Part shown: piece by piece, positions 33,931 through 44,733 of the stretch
Numbering within the stretch: the first letter of the stretch is position 1
Layout: the number at the start of each line of letters is the position of its first letter
NCBI RefSeq assembly: GCF_024372725.1
Contig: NZ_VOUA01000001.1
Location: 1 to 64,000, forward strand
Length of the DNA: 64,000 nucleotides
Reading direction: 5' to 3'
From: Methanosarcina sp. KYL-1
Lineage (GTDB): Archaea; Halobacteriota; Methanosarcinia; Methanosarcinales; Methanosarcinaceae
The notes under the pieces: generated by a model
The model's input: the letters and a program-made list of their open reading frames with translations, nothing else
Told to the model about the DNA's origin: nothing
Database searches by the model: none
Program-made: the position numbers and the translations under genes

Positions 33931-34251
33931 TGGTATTTTTCCTTTATCCAGCCAAGTTTCTCTATTTTTAGATATGTTTATCTCTAAATTTTATTCATAT
34001 ATACCTCTTCTGGCCAGATCATCAAACTATTCGGCAGAGTCTACGGATTTTCACTTTGCGTTTTGAACGGTTGAATCTCTTTAGCCCGGCTTTCGGAAAC
34101 ATCCGGAAAAGCAATAAGAACAAATCGGCAGTTTTTTATTCGGTTTCTTAAATTCCTATCTATCTTTTACTATATTTCTTGGAAAGTTATGATGTGCTCC
34201 CTCCGGAAATGGGGAAGAGCCCGTTCAAATACAAATCGAGGTAGAAGTTTT
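33931..34251. other. Spacer upstream of pepF
   Basis: No gene seen. AT-rich; candidate promoter elements for pepF near 34130-34190. Confidence 0.4.
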
Positions 34252-36300
34252 ATGAAAAGGGAAGTTTTTACAGGGGTTACGGTTCTCGGGATATTCCTTT
34301 TATTTTTTGTTTTTCCAGGATGCGGGGCTTCGGTTGAGGCTGAAGCCGGGTCACCCTCCGGAATTACGGTAGGGGAATATGAATTTGAAGAAATCAATCC
34401 CGACGAGGTTACGACAGCATGGGACGACACATATCTCTTCGGCAGCAGGGGAGATGCTCAGGAAGAGCTTGAGAGGCTGAAACAGAGGTCTGTGGAGATC
34501 AGCGAAACCTTCCGTCCGGAATTCGAGGAGCTTTCGGGGCCTGTCTTGCTGGACTACATCGAAACCAAAAAAGAGTTTTCAAGGTCCTTTGAGGTCCTGT
34601 ATATTTATGCATACACAGGGCTCAGCAAAAACGTAAATGACCAATTTTTTTCATCTCTTCTTGCGAACACCCAGGACCTGGCTACAGAACATGGGAAAGC
34701 CGTTGCATTTGCCACTGTAAAGCTGACTTCGCTCTCAACGGAGGAATGGGAGCAGCTCTTTTCCGAAGAGCCCGGGCTTGAAGAATACCGCTCTTATCTT
34801 GAAGCTGCCTATGTCAGGTTTGCAGAGCACAGGCCGGAGGACGAGGCCCAGGCGGCATACCTTGCAGATCTGGAGAACCAGCGCATGAAACTCCGGACCG
34901 AGGCATTTTCAAAGATTACGAACAACGTCACAAGGGCAGGGAACATAACCCTCGAGAACGGGGACGAATATGCGGTCAACTCCCAGTCCTATTACACCCT
35001 GCTTTCAACGGACCCCAGCAGGGCCAACAGGGAAAAATGCTATGGTCAGAGGTTTTACCACCTGATTGACGAATCGGATTCAATGGCTGTTCTCTATTCC
35101 GAAAAAGCCCGGCTTGACGACCTTGCTGCAAGGGAGCTGGACTATAAGGACTCTTACGAAGCCTGCCTTTACCGCCTCTACCTTAAAGGCTCGCAGGTTG
35201 AAGAGATGAATACGGTCTTCAAGGAACGAAAAGGCGTATTTGAAGGCTGTAACGATTTCAGGAAAACAAAGCTCGGGCTCGAAACCCTTAAACCCTTCGA
35301 CATCAACCTGCAGTTGACCGAGGTACCGGGAGGAGAATATGCTTATGCGGATGCTCTGAAAAGCGTCCAGAAGTCCTATGCAGGGATGGACCCCCGTTTT
35401 AATGGCATCTTTCTGGAGATAGTGACAGGGAATTTCATAGACGTGTACCCTGATCCCGAGAATGGAAAACAGCCGGGCGGCTACTGCTACGGACTCTCCG
35501 CCCTGCAGGCCCCGGCCCTGATCTTCATGAACTATAACGGCCTGATCTCAGACCAGAAGGCCCTCACCCACGAACTGGGGCACGGGATCCATTTCTACCT
35601 GATGGGCCAGTCCGTTGATTACCTCTACTGCAGCGCCCCGATCTACGAAATGGAGGTCCCTTCCACTTTCAATGAAGAGCTCTTTGTCGATTACGTGGTT
35701 GAAAACTCTGATCGGGATACTGCTGTTGCAGTGCTCTCCCAGCATATAGGGGAATACCAGAACTACTTCTCCTTCCAGCCCATGATAACGGAATTCGAAT
35801 GGAAAGCCCACCAGCTCTGCGCCGAAAAAGATGCTGAAAACGGGACTGTCAGCGGAGCAGAACTCAATGCCCTCTGGACCGAACTGTATAAAGAATACAG
35901 GAGCGACTCCATCGAATACTATGCCGGAGACTCTGCGGAATGGACCTACATCAACCACATATACCTGACAAATAACTACTACACATTCAACTACGCAGTT
36001 TCTAAATCAATAACCCTTGCCCTCTTCAAGCAGTATAGGGAAGACCCGGAAACCTTCAATGAAAACTACATTGCCTACCTCTCTGCAGGCACGACGATGA
36101 CTCCCGAAGAAAAACTGAAAAAATACTTCGGCATCGAAATCAACAAGCAGCTCTTTGAAGACGCCATGGATGTCGTGGAGCTAAGGATCCTGCAGCTTGA
36201 GGAGCTGGAAAGAGAGAGGAACGGCCCGAAATTCGAGTCTGCCGCAGAAAGCCTGAACGTCTATTCCGGTTCTTTCTGGGAGGTTCCGGTGGGAGAATGA
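34252..36300 (+). CDS. pepF: Oligoendopeptidase F (M3 family), predicted lipoprotein
   Basis: A 682-residue M3 zinc metallopeptidase that cleaves oligopeptides. The catalytic motif HELGHGIHF (zinc His residues and catalytic Glu) is at about two-thirds of the length in [14 protein letters not shown], with the downstream Glu ligand in [14 protein letters not shown]. The N-terminus has a signal peptide with a lipobox ([10 protein letters not shown]), so it should be anchored outside the membrane; most PepF enzymes are cytosolic. I chose the ATG at 34252 (MKREVFTG) since the longer frame lacks a signal-like start. Its stop codon lies in the first unit of a repeat array. Confidence 0.93.
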
Positions 36301-36507
36301 TCGATTGAAAGCTGATCGATTGGAAGCTGATCGATTGGAAGTTGATCGATTGGAAGCTGATCGATTGGAAGCTGATCGATTGGAAGTTGATCGATTGGAA
36401 GTTGATCGATTGGAAGTTGATCGATTGGAAGTTGATCGATTGGAAGTTGATCGATTGGAAGTTGATCGATTGGAAGTTGATCGATTGGAAGTTGATCGAT
36501 TGGAAGA
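36298..36507. repeat. 15-bp tandem repeat, 14 copies
   Basis: Fourteen units of TGATCGATTGGAAG(C/T), each containing ATCGAT. The first TGA is the pepF stop codon, and because the unit is 15 bp, TGA recurs in the pepF frame every five codons. Frames encoding FQSIN or EVDRL repeats on either strand are products of the array and are not called as genes. Confidence 0.97.
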
Positions 36508-36636
36508 CTAAAATGAATTGAAAACTTTGGGGCTCCGAGGACATTTAAGTGCCCTCCCCTCCAACTTCTTTTCTTTTTGCTTACTTTTGCCCCGCGAAAG
36601 GTATTTTTCTGCTTTTTGCAGTACCTTGCACTCTCA

Positions 36637-41872: not shown

Positions 41873-43051
41873 ATGGCCGAAAAGGTGTTTGTGGTCGGAG
41901 GGGACGTTGAGCCTCCGTACTTTATCGGAAGGGAGCGGGAGATTCAAAAGTTGACACTGGACATCCTGGAACAGGCCCAGAACAATGTGATCATAGGCCC
42001 GCGAAGGATCGGGAAAACTTCCCTGCTCGGAAACCTCAAGGCTGCAGTGGAAAAAGAGGTACTTTTTGTCCCGGTCAACTGCCGGGAAATGACCGGCCTT
42101 GCCGATTTTTTCGGGGTAACGGCCCGGGCCCTGGTCGAAGCCTATGCAGAAAAACACAGGATCAGGGGCCTTGCCCTGAAGTTTTCCGGAATTTTCAGGG
42201 AAAAAATTACGGCAGCTTACGGGGCCCTTGCAGAAATAGGGGGCAGTATCGAGCATGTGGGAAAGGTCTACCTCAGGTTCCGGGACAATGAACTGAAAGT
42301 AGAGGAGCTGATAGCGGAAACTTTTGAGTTTATCGAAAGCTTCTCTCACGAAAAAAAAGAGCCCGTACTGGTAGCTTTTGACGAGTTCCAGGAACTCAGC
42401 AGGTTTAACGGCAGCATCTTCAATACGCTGAAAAGCCGGATGGACAGGCACCTGGAAGTCAGGTACATTTTCTCAGGTTCTTCCATATCCCTTTTGCATG
42501 AGGTTTTCTTAAAACCTGATTCCCCCCTCTACCTCATGGCCGCCAGGACCGAACTCAAACCGATACAGGAAGCCGATGTGAAAATATACATACGGAGCCG
42601 GCTCGCAACAAGGCAGATTGAAATCTCGGACCAGGCCCTTGAAAAAATCCACGAGCTAACCGGAGGCTTCCCCTTTTACTTCCAGAAACTCGGCTTCCTG
42701 CTCTACCAGGACGCTTCCCTCGAAGAAAAGACCCTGATCGGCTCCGAAGACGTGGAAAAGGCTTTCTCCGCAATGCTTGACGAATTCGACAGCGAATACG
42801 AAGCCCGCTACATGGACAAATTCAGCGAACAGCAAAAAAAGGTCCTTAAATACCTCTCAGCCGAAAAGCAAATGCGCCTTAGCCAGGTCGCCCGGGATAT
42901 GGACGCGCCTGCCTCCTCCCTCACCACCTCCATGCGGGACCTCTACAGCACAATGACGGTCAACAAACCGGAAGAGGGCCTGTACGGGATTGCGGATAAC
43001 GTGTTCCGGCTCTGGATAAAAAGGAATATACTGGGACAGGGCCAGGAATGA
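41873..43051 (+). CDS. Archaeal AAA-type ATPase with C-terminal winged helix
   Basis: 392 residues of the archaeal ATPase family (STAND-related). FIGREREIQKL leads into the Walker A IGPRRIGKTSLL (about 41-52), Walker B VLVAFDEFQEL and sensor-like YIFSGSSISLL. Then come a helical lid and a C-terminal winged helix (LRLSQVARDMDAPASSLTTSMRDL pattern). Family members are numerous and often mobile in archaea; targets are generally unknown. The C-terminal helix-turn-helix could bind the inverted repeat at its own promoter. Similar repeat fragments bracket the gene. Confidence 0.85.
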   Translation: MAEKVFVVGGDVEPPYFIGREREIQKLTLDILEQAQNNVIIGPRRIGKTSLLGNLKAAVEKEVLFVPVNCREMTGLADFFGVTARALVEAYAEKHRIRGLALKFSGIFREKITAAYGALAEIGGSIEHVGKVYLRFRDNELKVEELIAETFEFIESFSHEKKEPVLVAFDEFQELSRFNGSIFNTLKSRMDRHLEVRYIFSGSSISLLHEVFLKPDSPLYLMAARTELKPIQEADVKIYIRSRLATRQIEISDQALEKIHELTGGFPFYFQKLGFLLYQDASLEEKTLIGSEDVEKAFSAMLDEFDSEYEARYMDKFSEQQKKVLKYLSAEKQMRLSQVARDMDAPASSLTTSMRDLYSTMTVNKPEEGLYGIADNVFRLWIKRNILGQGQE

Positions 43052-43192: not shown

Positions 43193-43350
43193 TGGAAAAA
43201 GGCCGCTTGCAAGCAAGCGGACAAGACACGTTTGATACGGTATTACGTTTGCTCCGGTGTTTTCATAATGCGTATCTATCCACCTGTTTTTCGTCCGCTT
43301 GAGTGAGCGCAGCGAGCGAAACGGACACCGTGCTGCCGAAGCGGAACTCG
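43193..43350 (+). repeat. Structured intergenic element, copy A
   Basis: Begins GGAAAAAGGCC, then a hairpin CCGCTTGC-AA-GCAAGCGG (43203-43220), the shared stretch ACACGTTTGATA-GGTATTAC, a variable middle, and a shared 3' block with AGCGAGCGAAACGGACACCGTGCT and CCGAAGCGG. Copy B is 360 bp downstream with the same order. It is non-coding and possibly a mobile repeat or an RNA. Confidence 0.75.
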
Positions 43351-43553
43351 GCTGCTGTGCCAGTGCCCCGGTGGTGACCAGACCGCAGTCCTGCGCCGGT
43401 GTCTGCCGGACAAAGAGAATTCGAGCCGCTGCCTCTGGTAGGACCGGATGCCAATAATGCTGAGGTTTCGAAGGCGGTAGCGGTTTCTACAAAGTTTTTA
43501 TCCAGTTTTTGCTTCGTGTTTTTTCATGCGCTTCGTATTTTCATTCTGGATTC
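43351..43553. other. Sequence between repeat copies
   Basis: GC-rich segment (to about 43450) continuing copy A and similar to the fragment at 41750, then AT-rich sequence. Short frames on both strands look like chance or a worn remnant; no product recognised. Confidence 0.4.
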
Positions 43554-43738
43554 AGGAAAAGGCCATTTGCTTCGCAAATGGGACATAACACGTTTGATAA
43601 GGTATTACAGTTGCCTTGGTTTTTCATTCCCTCAGCTTATCCCCACACCGGTTTTTAGATATATTAAACGGTTTTTTCGTCCTCTTGAGCGAGCGTAGCG
43701 AGCGAAACGGACACCGTGCTCCCGAAGCGGGATTCGGG
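43554..43738 (+). repeat. Structured intergenic element, copy B
   Basis: Same layout as copy A: GGAAAAGGCC, hairpin CCATTTGC-TTC-GCAAATGG (43563-43581), ACACGTTTGATA-GGTATTAC, a variable middle with an AT-rich insert, and AGCGAGCGAAACGGACACCGTGCT then CCCGAAGCGG. Two base pairs of the hairpin differ from copy A and both are compensated. It ends next to the radical SAM stop codon. Confidence 0.75.
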
Positions 43739-43740
43739 TG

Positions 43741-44733
43741 TTACATCCACTCATAACACATCAATACTTCCGGATTGAACCCCTGCATCAAACTGTTTTC
43801 CGTATACCCGAAAAAGAGGCACCCCTCACAGTTCCTCACGATCTCCTCCCGCCGGGCTTTCGAATCCTCCCACACTTTCTCAAACCCGTCCCTCATTACA
43901 TTCCCGAGCGGCTCGTGCTGCACCCGGCAGGTTTCTGCCGTTCCGTCGTGGGTGACGTTGATGATTACGCTGCTCGCCCGGCATGTGTAGTCCATGTTCC
44001 CGTCCCTGACCATGCGGAGGTATGTTTTGGAGTTGATGATGGGGTAGCCCTGTTTTTTCAGTTCGATTATGCGGTCGACGGTGCGGCGGAACTTTTCTTT
44101 ATCGCGGATTCCGATTTCGTTCCAGGTCTCTTTGTCGATTCCGGGGAACTCGTGGACCGGCTCAAAGGAGATTTTTGTGCCCAGGTCTTTTGCAAGCAAA
44201 ATCAGGGGTTCGATGTCGTCCAGGTTTTTCCCGCTGAGCACGCAGTTCAGGAGGATGGGGTTTTTCTGGCGCTGGAGTTTTCTTACTTCAATGGCTTTTT
44301 TGATGCCTTTTAACAGGAAGTCGAAGTCCATTTTCCGGATTTCTCTATAGCTTTTTATCCCGTCAACGGAAACCGAAAGGAAGTCTACGTCCTCAAGCTC
44401 TTCGGCTTTTTCGTAGAGCAGCTTACCGTTTGTGACCATGGACGTTACCATCCCTAACTTTTTGGCATGGGCCATGATAAGGTGCAGGTCGTTTCGGAGA
44501 AGAGGTTCCGTGGTCCAGGCGTTGTAGACTCCTATACCGAAGGCTTTTGCATCTTCGAGCAGCCTGAAGATCTCTTCGCGGCCCGGCTCCTCGCCTGTCT
44601 CTTTCCAGTATTCGCAGAACTTGCAGCGCATATTGCAGCGGGCGTTTACGCCGTGGGAGATAACAAAGGGGCGTTTTTTTACTCTTATCTGCCAGAGGGC
44701 TTTTGCGGCGAAAAAGGGGTCAAACCGGGACAT
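43741..44733 (-). CDS. Radical SAM protein with SPASM-like C-terminus
   Basis: 330 residues. The radical SAM cluster motif CNMRCKFC has Cys 33, 37 and 40. AWTTEPLLRNDL and MVTNGKLL follow the usual barrel pattern. The C-terminal region has extra Cys (DYTCRASS, AETCRVQHEPLGNV, NCEGCLFFGY) as in SPASM/twitch proteins or HpnH-like enzymes. The substrate cannot be told; no peptide or lipid gene is adjacent. The ATG start MSRFDPFFAAKAL resembles many methanogen homologues. Confidence 0.88.
   Translation of the reverse strand: MSRFDPFFAAKALWQIRVKKRPFVISHGVNARCNMRCKFCEYWKETGEEPGREEIFRLLEDAKAFGIGVYNAWTTEPLLRNDLHLIMAHAKKLGMVTSMVTNGKLLYEKAEELEDVDFLSVSVDGIKSYREIRKMDFDFLLKGIKKAIEVRKLQRQKNPILLNCVLSGKNLDDIEPLILLAKDLGTKISFEPVHEFPGIDKETWNEIGIRDKEKFRRTVDRIIELKKQGYPIINSKTYLRMVRDGNMDYTCRASSVIINVTHDGTAETCRVQHEPLGNVMRDGFEKVWEDSKARREEIVRNCEGCLFFGYTENSLMQGFNPEVLMCYEWM

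What the first reader, a model, noticed from the sequence alone, without database searches (positions are those of the whole stretch)
43193..43738. Repeated intergenic element with a covarying hairpin
Copies A and B share start, end and order of blocks. Their hairpins differ in two stem pairs (CCGCTTGC/GCAAGCGG against CCATTTGC/GCAAATGG), and each change is compensated, which means the structure matters as RNA or as a hairpin DNA substrate. The shared stretch ACACGTTTGATA-GGTATTAC follows in both. No frame explains it. This could be a small RNA family, or the recognition end of a mobile repeat.
Basis: seen in the sequence. Interest (0 to 1): 0.65.

Follow-up and report, generated by a model that had tools for sequence, protein, structure and literature searches.

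The report
Mobile structured repeat in methane-making archaea
The two copies belong to a large family of short mobile DNA repeats scattered through Methanosarcina and related methane-making archaea, whose folded shape is preserved by matching pairs of mutations and some of whose insertions duplicate tens of bases of neighbouring DNA, a pattern that fits no standard small transposon.

Summary
Copies A and B share H1 hairpin, ACACGTTTGATA box, spacer and a 60-nt core (H2 plus H3). The core has at least 41 matches in this genome, occurs in 24 of 24 Methanosarcina genomes of the first survey, and in 43 of 237 genomes of the class, 42 of them in one family. Among 110 distinct copies 98.7% of paired cells are intact (35-46% when slid), 12 of 19 pairs change on both sides, and a 3-bp pseudoknot shows three Watson-Crick types. 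Copies show no bias to gene strand or gene end, yet 22 of 28 species keep one near the stop codon of the neighbouring radical-SAM gene. The family is mobile. Eight of 189 isolated copies are flanked by host-type direct repeats of 30-121 nt (one perhaps another repeat family, two at homologous loci); two such insertions, one outside that eight, are verified against empty sites with 85- and 78-nt duplications. No standard machinery explains this: Y1 transposase copies do not track the repeat, terminal inverted repeats are absent, and no Rfam family matches. I favour RNA-mediated, SINE-like insertion over hairpin-driven break repair, with modest confidence; transcription was not testable.

The parts
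43194..43352 (+). Copy A: long unit H1 + box + spacer + core
   Evidence: H1-to-core spacing 65-69 nt in most other copies
43203..43220 (+).
43226..43246 (+). Box ACACGTTTGATAcGGTATTAC of copy A
43293..43326 (+). H2 hairpin of copy A, with two tandem G.A motifs
43328..43330 (+). 5' strand of the 3-bp pseudoknot (CCG), partner 43342-43344 (CGG)
43335..43352 (+). H3 hairpin of copy A; 3' end of the unit
43360..43550 (+). MID block: folded module 5' of copy B, found at five further loci of this genome
43554..43738 (+). Copy B: H1 + box + spacer (24 nt longer) + core
43563..43581 (+). H1 hairpin of copy B
43679..43712 (+). H2 hairpin of copy B
43721..43738 (+). H3 hairpin of copy B, ending 2 nt from the stop codon of the convergent radical-SAM gene
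43741..44733 (-). Convergent radical-SAM type gene (named from its sequence); a copy of the element lies near its stop codon in 22 of 28 species
41873..43051 (+). AAA-type ATPase gene upstream of copy A (named from its sequence, not from a family search)

Best explanation
This is a family of short, non-coding, mobile repeats of the Methanosarcina family. Shown: a structured strand (H2 with tandem G.A pairs, H3, and a 3-bp pseudoknot between them); a common 3' end (H3, often followed by extra 13-19-nt units made of its own loop and 3' arm); a variable 5' end (core only, H1 plus core, or MID plus H1 plus core); many copies in intergenic DNA without regard to gene strand; insertions that sometimes duplicate 30-121 nt of the target, with the second target copy starting right after H3 or its tail. 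Inferred: the unit is transcribed, folds, and its RNA 3' end (ending in GG) pairs by a few bases with a nicked target; a reverse transcriptase supplied in trans copies it, and a distant second nick gives the long, variable duplication, as in SINE-like target-primed insertion. The shape is kept because it is what the copying machinery recognises.
For: Covariation on 110 distinct copies: 244 two-sided cells, 0 of 500 shuffles, 98.7% paired against 35-46% slid; the same at one fixed locus, 19 copies: 8 pairs with two-sided change, 1 of 500 shuffles. Strand: pair 12-29 has 27 G-U and 1 unpaired cell; G.A columns nearly invariant. Long flanking duplications: 11 of 189 isolated copies score 20 or more, 0.4 expected; 8 of the 11 are host-type sequence. 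Empty sites: L175 against L165, 85-nt duplication, 107-nt insert; L322 against L334, 78-nt duplication. Presence and absence at other sites. The second target copy begins at or within about 4 nt of GG in the ten cases examined. Reverse-transcriptase number tracks repeat number, Spearman 0.50, p 0.014, n 24.
Against: G008, with 131 matches, has no RVT_1 match, and G020 and G023 have none either; controlled for genome size the reverse-transcriptase correlation is 0.33, permutation p 0.115. Only a minority of copies show the duplication; L063 against L235 shows a 226-nt unit present or absent with none. I could show no tRNA, 7SL or 5S ancestry, and there are no transcript data. Single-sequence folding of the core is not better than shuffles (z -0.46 and -0.16, RNA; -0.45 and 0.57, DNA), and the lowest-energy fold of copy A differs from the covariation structure.
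Confidence: 0.35

Rival explanations
1. DNA-level spread: the folded strand forms on single-stranded DNA at replication forks or breaks; template switching or staggered break repair pastes a copy into a new site and re-copies neighbouring DNA, and slippage makes the tandem half-units.
For: Tandem units are common: whole units of about 67 nt, a 40-nt unit and 13-14-nt tail units; half-units upstream with about 40-nt period; junction microhomology; copies in genomes without a reverse transcriptase match.
Against: Does not by itself explain many dispersed copies with one 3' end, nor the strict pseudoknot pairing, which DNA folding energies do not favour.
Confidence: 0.3
2. REP/PATE-like repeat moved by a Y1 (IS200/IS605 or RAYT) transposase acting in trans on DNA hairpins.
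For: Y1_Tnp is present in 26 of 30 genus genomes; the sequence before the core often ends in TTA (100 of 227 copies).
Against: No correlation of copy numbers; G013, a 99% complete genome without Y1_Tnp match, carries the repeat; 1 of 27 Y1 loci has a significant copy in its flanks; long target duplications are not expected of Y1 transposition (general knowledge).
Confidence: 0.15
3. A functional RNA or DNA element kept by selection for a cell function, for example at the 3' side of rRNA/tRNA transcription units, that later spread in Methanosarcina.
For: In low-copy sister genera copies lie at the tRNA-Pro(ggg) 3' end or in the distal rRNA operon; a copy near the radical-SAM stop codon is present in 22 of 28 species with compensated changes.
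Against: No match in several sister genomes (G126, G134, G136); no strand or gene-end preference in Methanosarcina; copies next to rRNA/tRNA also carry flanking duplications (L390, L388), as insertions would.
Confidence: 0.15

Closest known systems
REP / BIME repeats and RAYT transposases of bacteria
   Same: Short, hairpin-bearing, intergenic, high copy, tandem clusters (PMC3733652 passages; PMC2817692 listing)
   Different: Longer, with pseudoknot and tandem G.A motifs; no GTAG or CGTC tag at the hairpin foot; no linked transposase; reported there in bacterial phyla (passages of PMC3733652)
IS200/IS605-derived hairpin elements (PATE-type; name recalled)
   Same: Hairpins near both ends, no terminal inverted repeats, AT-rich left flank
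   Different: Long variable target duplications; copy number independent of Y1_Tnp
SINEs of eukaryotes (features recalled; PMC3747384 seen in a listing only)
   Same: Non-coding structured unit, common 3' end, repeated tail, variable 5' end, target duplications
   Different: No polymerase III ancestry shown, no partner reverse transcriptase identified, prokaryote host
Methanosarcina satellites (PMC6749651: abstract, passages and one section read)
   Same: Short tandem repeats abundant in Methanosarcina; probably include the tail units seen here
   Different: That paper lists tandem repeats and, in what I read, describes no structured dispersed unit

Membership tests
REP/RAYT system | GT[AG]G or CGTC tag at the foot of the hairpin | tested here: not met
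   5' flank of H2 is mostly AATTA/ATTCA/TTTTA; H1 is preceded by GGAAAAGG-like sequence
REP/RAYT system | Linked or co-varying Y1 transposase gene | tested here: not met
REP/RAYT system | High-copy intergenic palindrome | tested here: met
IS200/IS605-derived element | No target-site duplication | tested here: not met
   for a minority of copies; one comparison without duplication
MITE of a DDE transposon | Terminal inverted repeats and short fixed target duplication | tested here: not met
   the two ends of the unit do not pair, by inspection; duplications long and variable
SINE-like retroposon | Common 3' end with variable 5' extent | tested here: met
SINE-like retroposon | Variable-length target duplication | tested here: met
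   a minority of copies
SINE-like retroposon | Partner reverse transcriptase | tested here: inconclusive
   G008 has no RVT_1 match
SINE-like retroposon | Transcribed from its own promoter | not testable with these tools
   no RNA data
Known RNA family | Rfam match | tested here: not met
   only tRNA in the window; a chance mir-27 hit at E 1.5 over the element

The most novel reading that the evidence does not exclude
An archaeal SINE: a small structured non-coding RNA that spreads through Methanosarcinaceae genomes by reverse transcription in trans, primed at nicked targets through its GG-ending H3 3' end, leaving long target duplications, with a low-copy ancestral stage next to tRNA and 5S rRNA genes in sister genera.
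Probability: 0.25. Interest if true: 0.9.

Novelty: new variant of a known kind. Interest (0 to 1): 0.62.

Why it matters
Short dispersed repeats of prokaryotes are usually explained by Y1 transposases. A family-wide repeat with a pseudoknot, conserved non-canonical pairs and target duplications of up to about 120 nt, and without a matching transposase, points to another route of spread. If RNA-mediated it would be a prokaryotic counterpart of SINEs, and it is testable in tractable laboratory methanogens.

Tried and rejected
Rfam scans at gathering and relaxed thresholds over the window element and 20 own-genome loci gave no family. Y1_Tnp association: rejected. Cis-acting mRNA element or terminator: no orientation or gene-end preference among 140 classified copies, 43/33/32/32; neighbouring 3' ends 140, 5' ends 140 (crude ORF caller; 32 of 198 copies fell inside ORFs of 90 aa or more, most of them under 150 aa). 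Search for short target duplications with contiguous flanks gave tandem copies or diverged spacers; the long duplications appeared when overlaps were allowed. G013/G039 hits are not at matching positions, so they gave no simple empty-site series. Of the 11 copies over the duplication threshold I discount three: L123 (the element's own tail), L186 (an H1 module) and L137 (simple repeat). L093 may be another repeat family, and L174 and L092 are homologous loci, so independent events are about six in that set, plus L322 and L388. Literature: ten searches; none of the listings described this element; two Methanosarcina genome papers are not held, so prior description is not excluded.

Full report
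What is there. Between a + strand ATPase gene ending at 43051 and a - strand radical-SAM gene ending at 43741 lie two copies of one unit. Each copy has, in order, a hairpin H1, the box ACACGTTTGATA-GGTATTAC, a pyrimidine-rich spacer, and a 60-nt core. Copy B is preceded by a further block, MID, that also occurs in L009, L010, L011, L019 and, in part, L013, and has its own predicted stem.

Copy number and range. blastn with the whole stretch gives 41 matches in this genome. A covariance model (R1) was built from 24 of the 35 core anchors; eleven with inserted hairpins, truncated tandem units or an identical neighbour were left out. It gives 41 matches in this genome and matches in 24 of 24 same-genus genomes, own included, with 3 to 131 each, and in 1 of 15 genomes of other families of the order. 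The counts are lower bounds, since at most 136-150 candidates per genome were scored. In the class, 43 of 237 genomes match at 1e-5: 42 in the same family and one outside it (stricter filters, so G010 and G017 drop out there). A DNA pattern in named genomes gave 77 stretches, all labelled Methanosarcina, Methanosarcinaceae or Euryarchaeota MAG.

Structure. RNAalifold on the 24 copies predicts H2 and H3 unaided. I added a pseudoknot between the bases 5' of H3 and the H3 loop. On 124 matches from 100 of the 149 loci held at the time (overlapping duplicates and, for the limit of 100 sources, L141-L149 left out; 110 distinct rows), 98.7% of cells pair, 12 of 19 pairs change on both sides and 244 cells do; no shuffle of 500 reaches the cell count, and the slid structures pair in 35-46% of cells. 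This alignment was fitted to H2 and H3 but not to the pseudoknot. The variable pseudoknot pair is G-C 45, C-G 33, U-A 22, U-G 1, unpaired 5. Columns that would form two tandem G.A/A.G motifs in H2 are almost invariant although the Watson-Crick pairs around them covary. Pair 12-29 has 27 G-U cells and one unpaired cell, so the strand given is the one that folds. Against this, minimum-energy folds of single copies are no better than shuffles and copy A's lowest-energy fold is a different one; H1 alone is stable (z -2.40 and -2.94). H1 in 18 copies pairs in 89.1% of cells; L186 and L232, in which H1 is missing or replaced, were left out of that set. H1 lies 65-69 nt before the core in most copies.

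Position. Of 198 distinct copies in fetched loci, 166 lie outside ORFs of 90 aa or more; the 140 with a neighbour on both sides split 43/33/32/32 over the four orientations. One site is old: of 28 genus loci that hold the 3' end of the radical-SAM gene, 22 have a match (E up to 0.01) within about 100 nt of its stop codon, convergent to it, while the gene on the other side differs between species. In 19 of these 22 (one with inserted hairpins and two weak ones left out) the pairs still covary: 8 pairs with two-sided change, 1 of 500 shuffles. In low-copy sister genera copies abut tRNA-Pro(ggg) (ARAGORN and the script find five; the same flanking sequence is seen in L382 and L402) or lie in the distal rRNA operon near 5S rRNA and tRNA-Cys.

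Mobility. A copy between two genes at the L015 site is present here and absent at the 27 orthologous sites that could be read in the genus survey, but present in L153, L154 and L220, with L210 empty at about 96% flank identity, although its spacer does not align. At that site L154 has the simple core and L153 a version with two extra hairpins. At the L027 site the element is present in some species and absent in others (G042, G008, G002, G007). At the window's own locus G042 keeps only a remnant tail.

Target duplications. In 189 isolated copies the 110 nt before and 150 nt after the core were compared; 11 score 20 or more against 0.4 expected from re-paired flanks. Three of the 11 are the element's own tail, an H1 module or simple repeats. 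The other eight are host-type: L174 84 nt, L158 121, L028 96, L060 86, L175 85, L092 56 or more, L093 42, L390 30; L093 may be another repeat family and L174 and L092 are homologous. L322 (72 nt) and L388 (21 nt) add two. The second copy starts right after H3 or its tail, at or near GG. Two are verified by empty sites. In L165 the 85-nt segment is single and runs straight into the downstream DNA, whereas L175 has segment, 107-nt insert, segment, downstream DNA. In L334 the 78-nt segment of L322 is single, and L345 agrees over the same 78 nt. A complication: G043 (L318) has the element at the L322 site without the second segment. In L063 against L235 a 226-nt unit from H1 to tail is present or absent with no duplication.

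Machinery. Y1_Tnp does not follow copy number. RVT_1 does so weakly (Spearman 0.50, p 0.014), but not clearly once genome size is controlled (0.33, permutation p 0.115), and G008, with the highest count, has no RVT_1 match. The mechanism is therefore not settled. I rank RNA-mediated insertion first because it accounts together for the common 3' end, variable 5' end, tail repeats, 3' microhomology and long variable duplications.

Novelty. Ten literature searches gave no description of this element. PMC6749651 (abstract, passages and one section read) reports many short tandem repeats in Methanosarcina, which likely include the tail units. Two genome papers that I looked for are not held, so an earlier mention as an intergenic repeat is possible.

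Noticed in passing
L226, L186, L235, L236, L239-L241, L246, L251, L254: A second dispersed repeat, core GAAGCCCGAAGGCTCGAAGCGTGCGAAGCCGCCGAGCC...GAGGTGCTGAGC, often next to the element; not analysed.
   Followed up: no
L012, L017, L020, L093, L158: Another short repeat, GGTGAGAGcCCCGGTACC with adjoining GGCCGG palindromes, recurring beside the element.
   Followed up: no
window 43360-43550; L009, L010, L011, L019: The MID block is 72-86% conserved between loci and predicted to fold into a branched stem; it may be a separate RNA or mobile module.
   Followed up: partly
L116-L126 (G008): A composite of two core units joined by AAGTAAAATCTGTGATTTTATAAATTA recurs at many sites of one genome, suggesting recent amplification.
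   Followed up: partly
window 36140-36544: Tandem 15-nt repeats overlap the end of the ORF at 34189-36300 (opposite frame reads QSINF repeatedly).
   Followed up: no
L397, L390, L401 (G122): The element lies between tRNA-Cys and a second 5S rRNA gene in three rRNA operons, flanked by a 30-nt duplication that includes the tRNA 3' end.
   Followed up: partly
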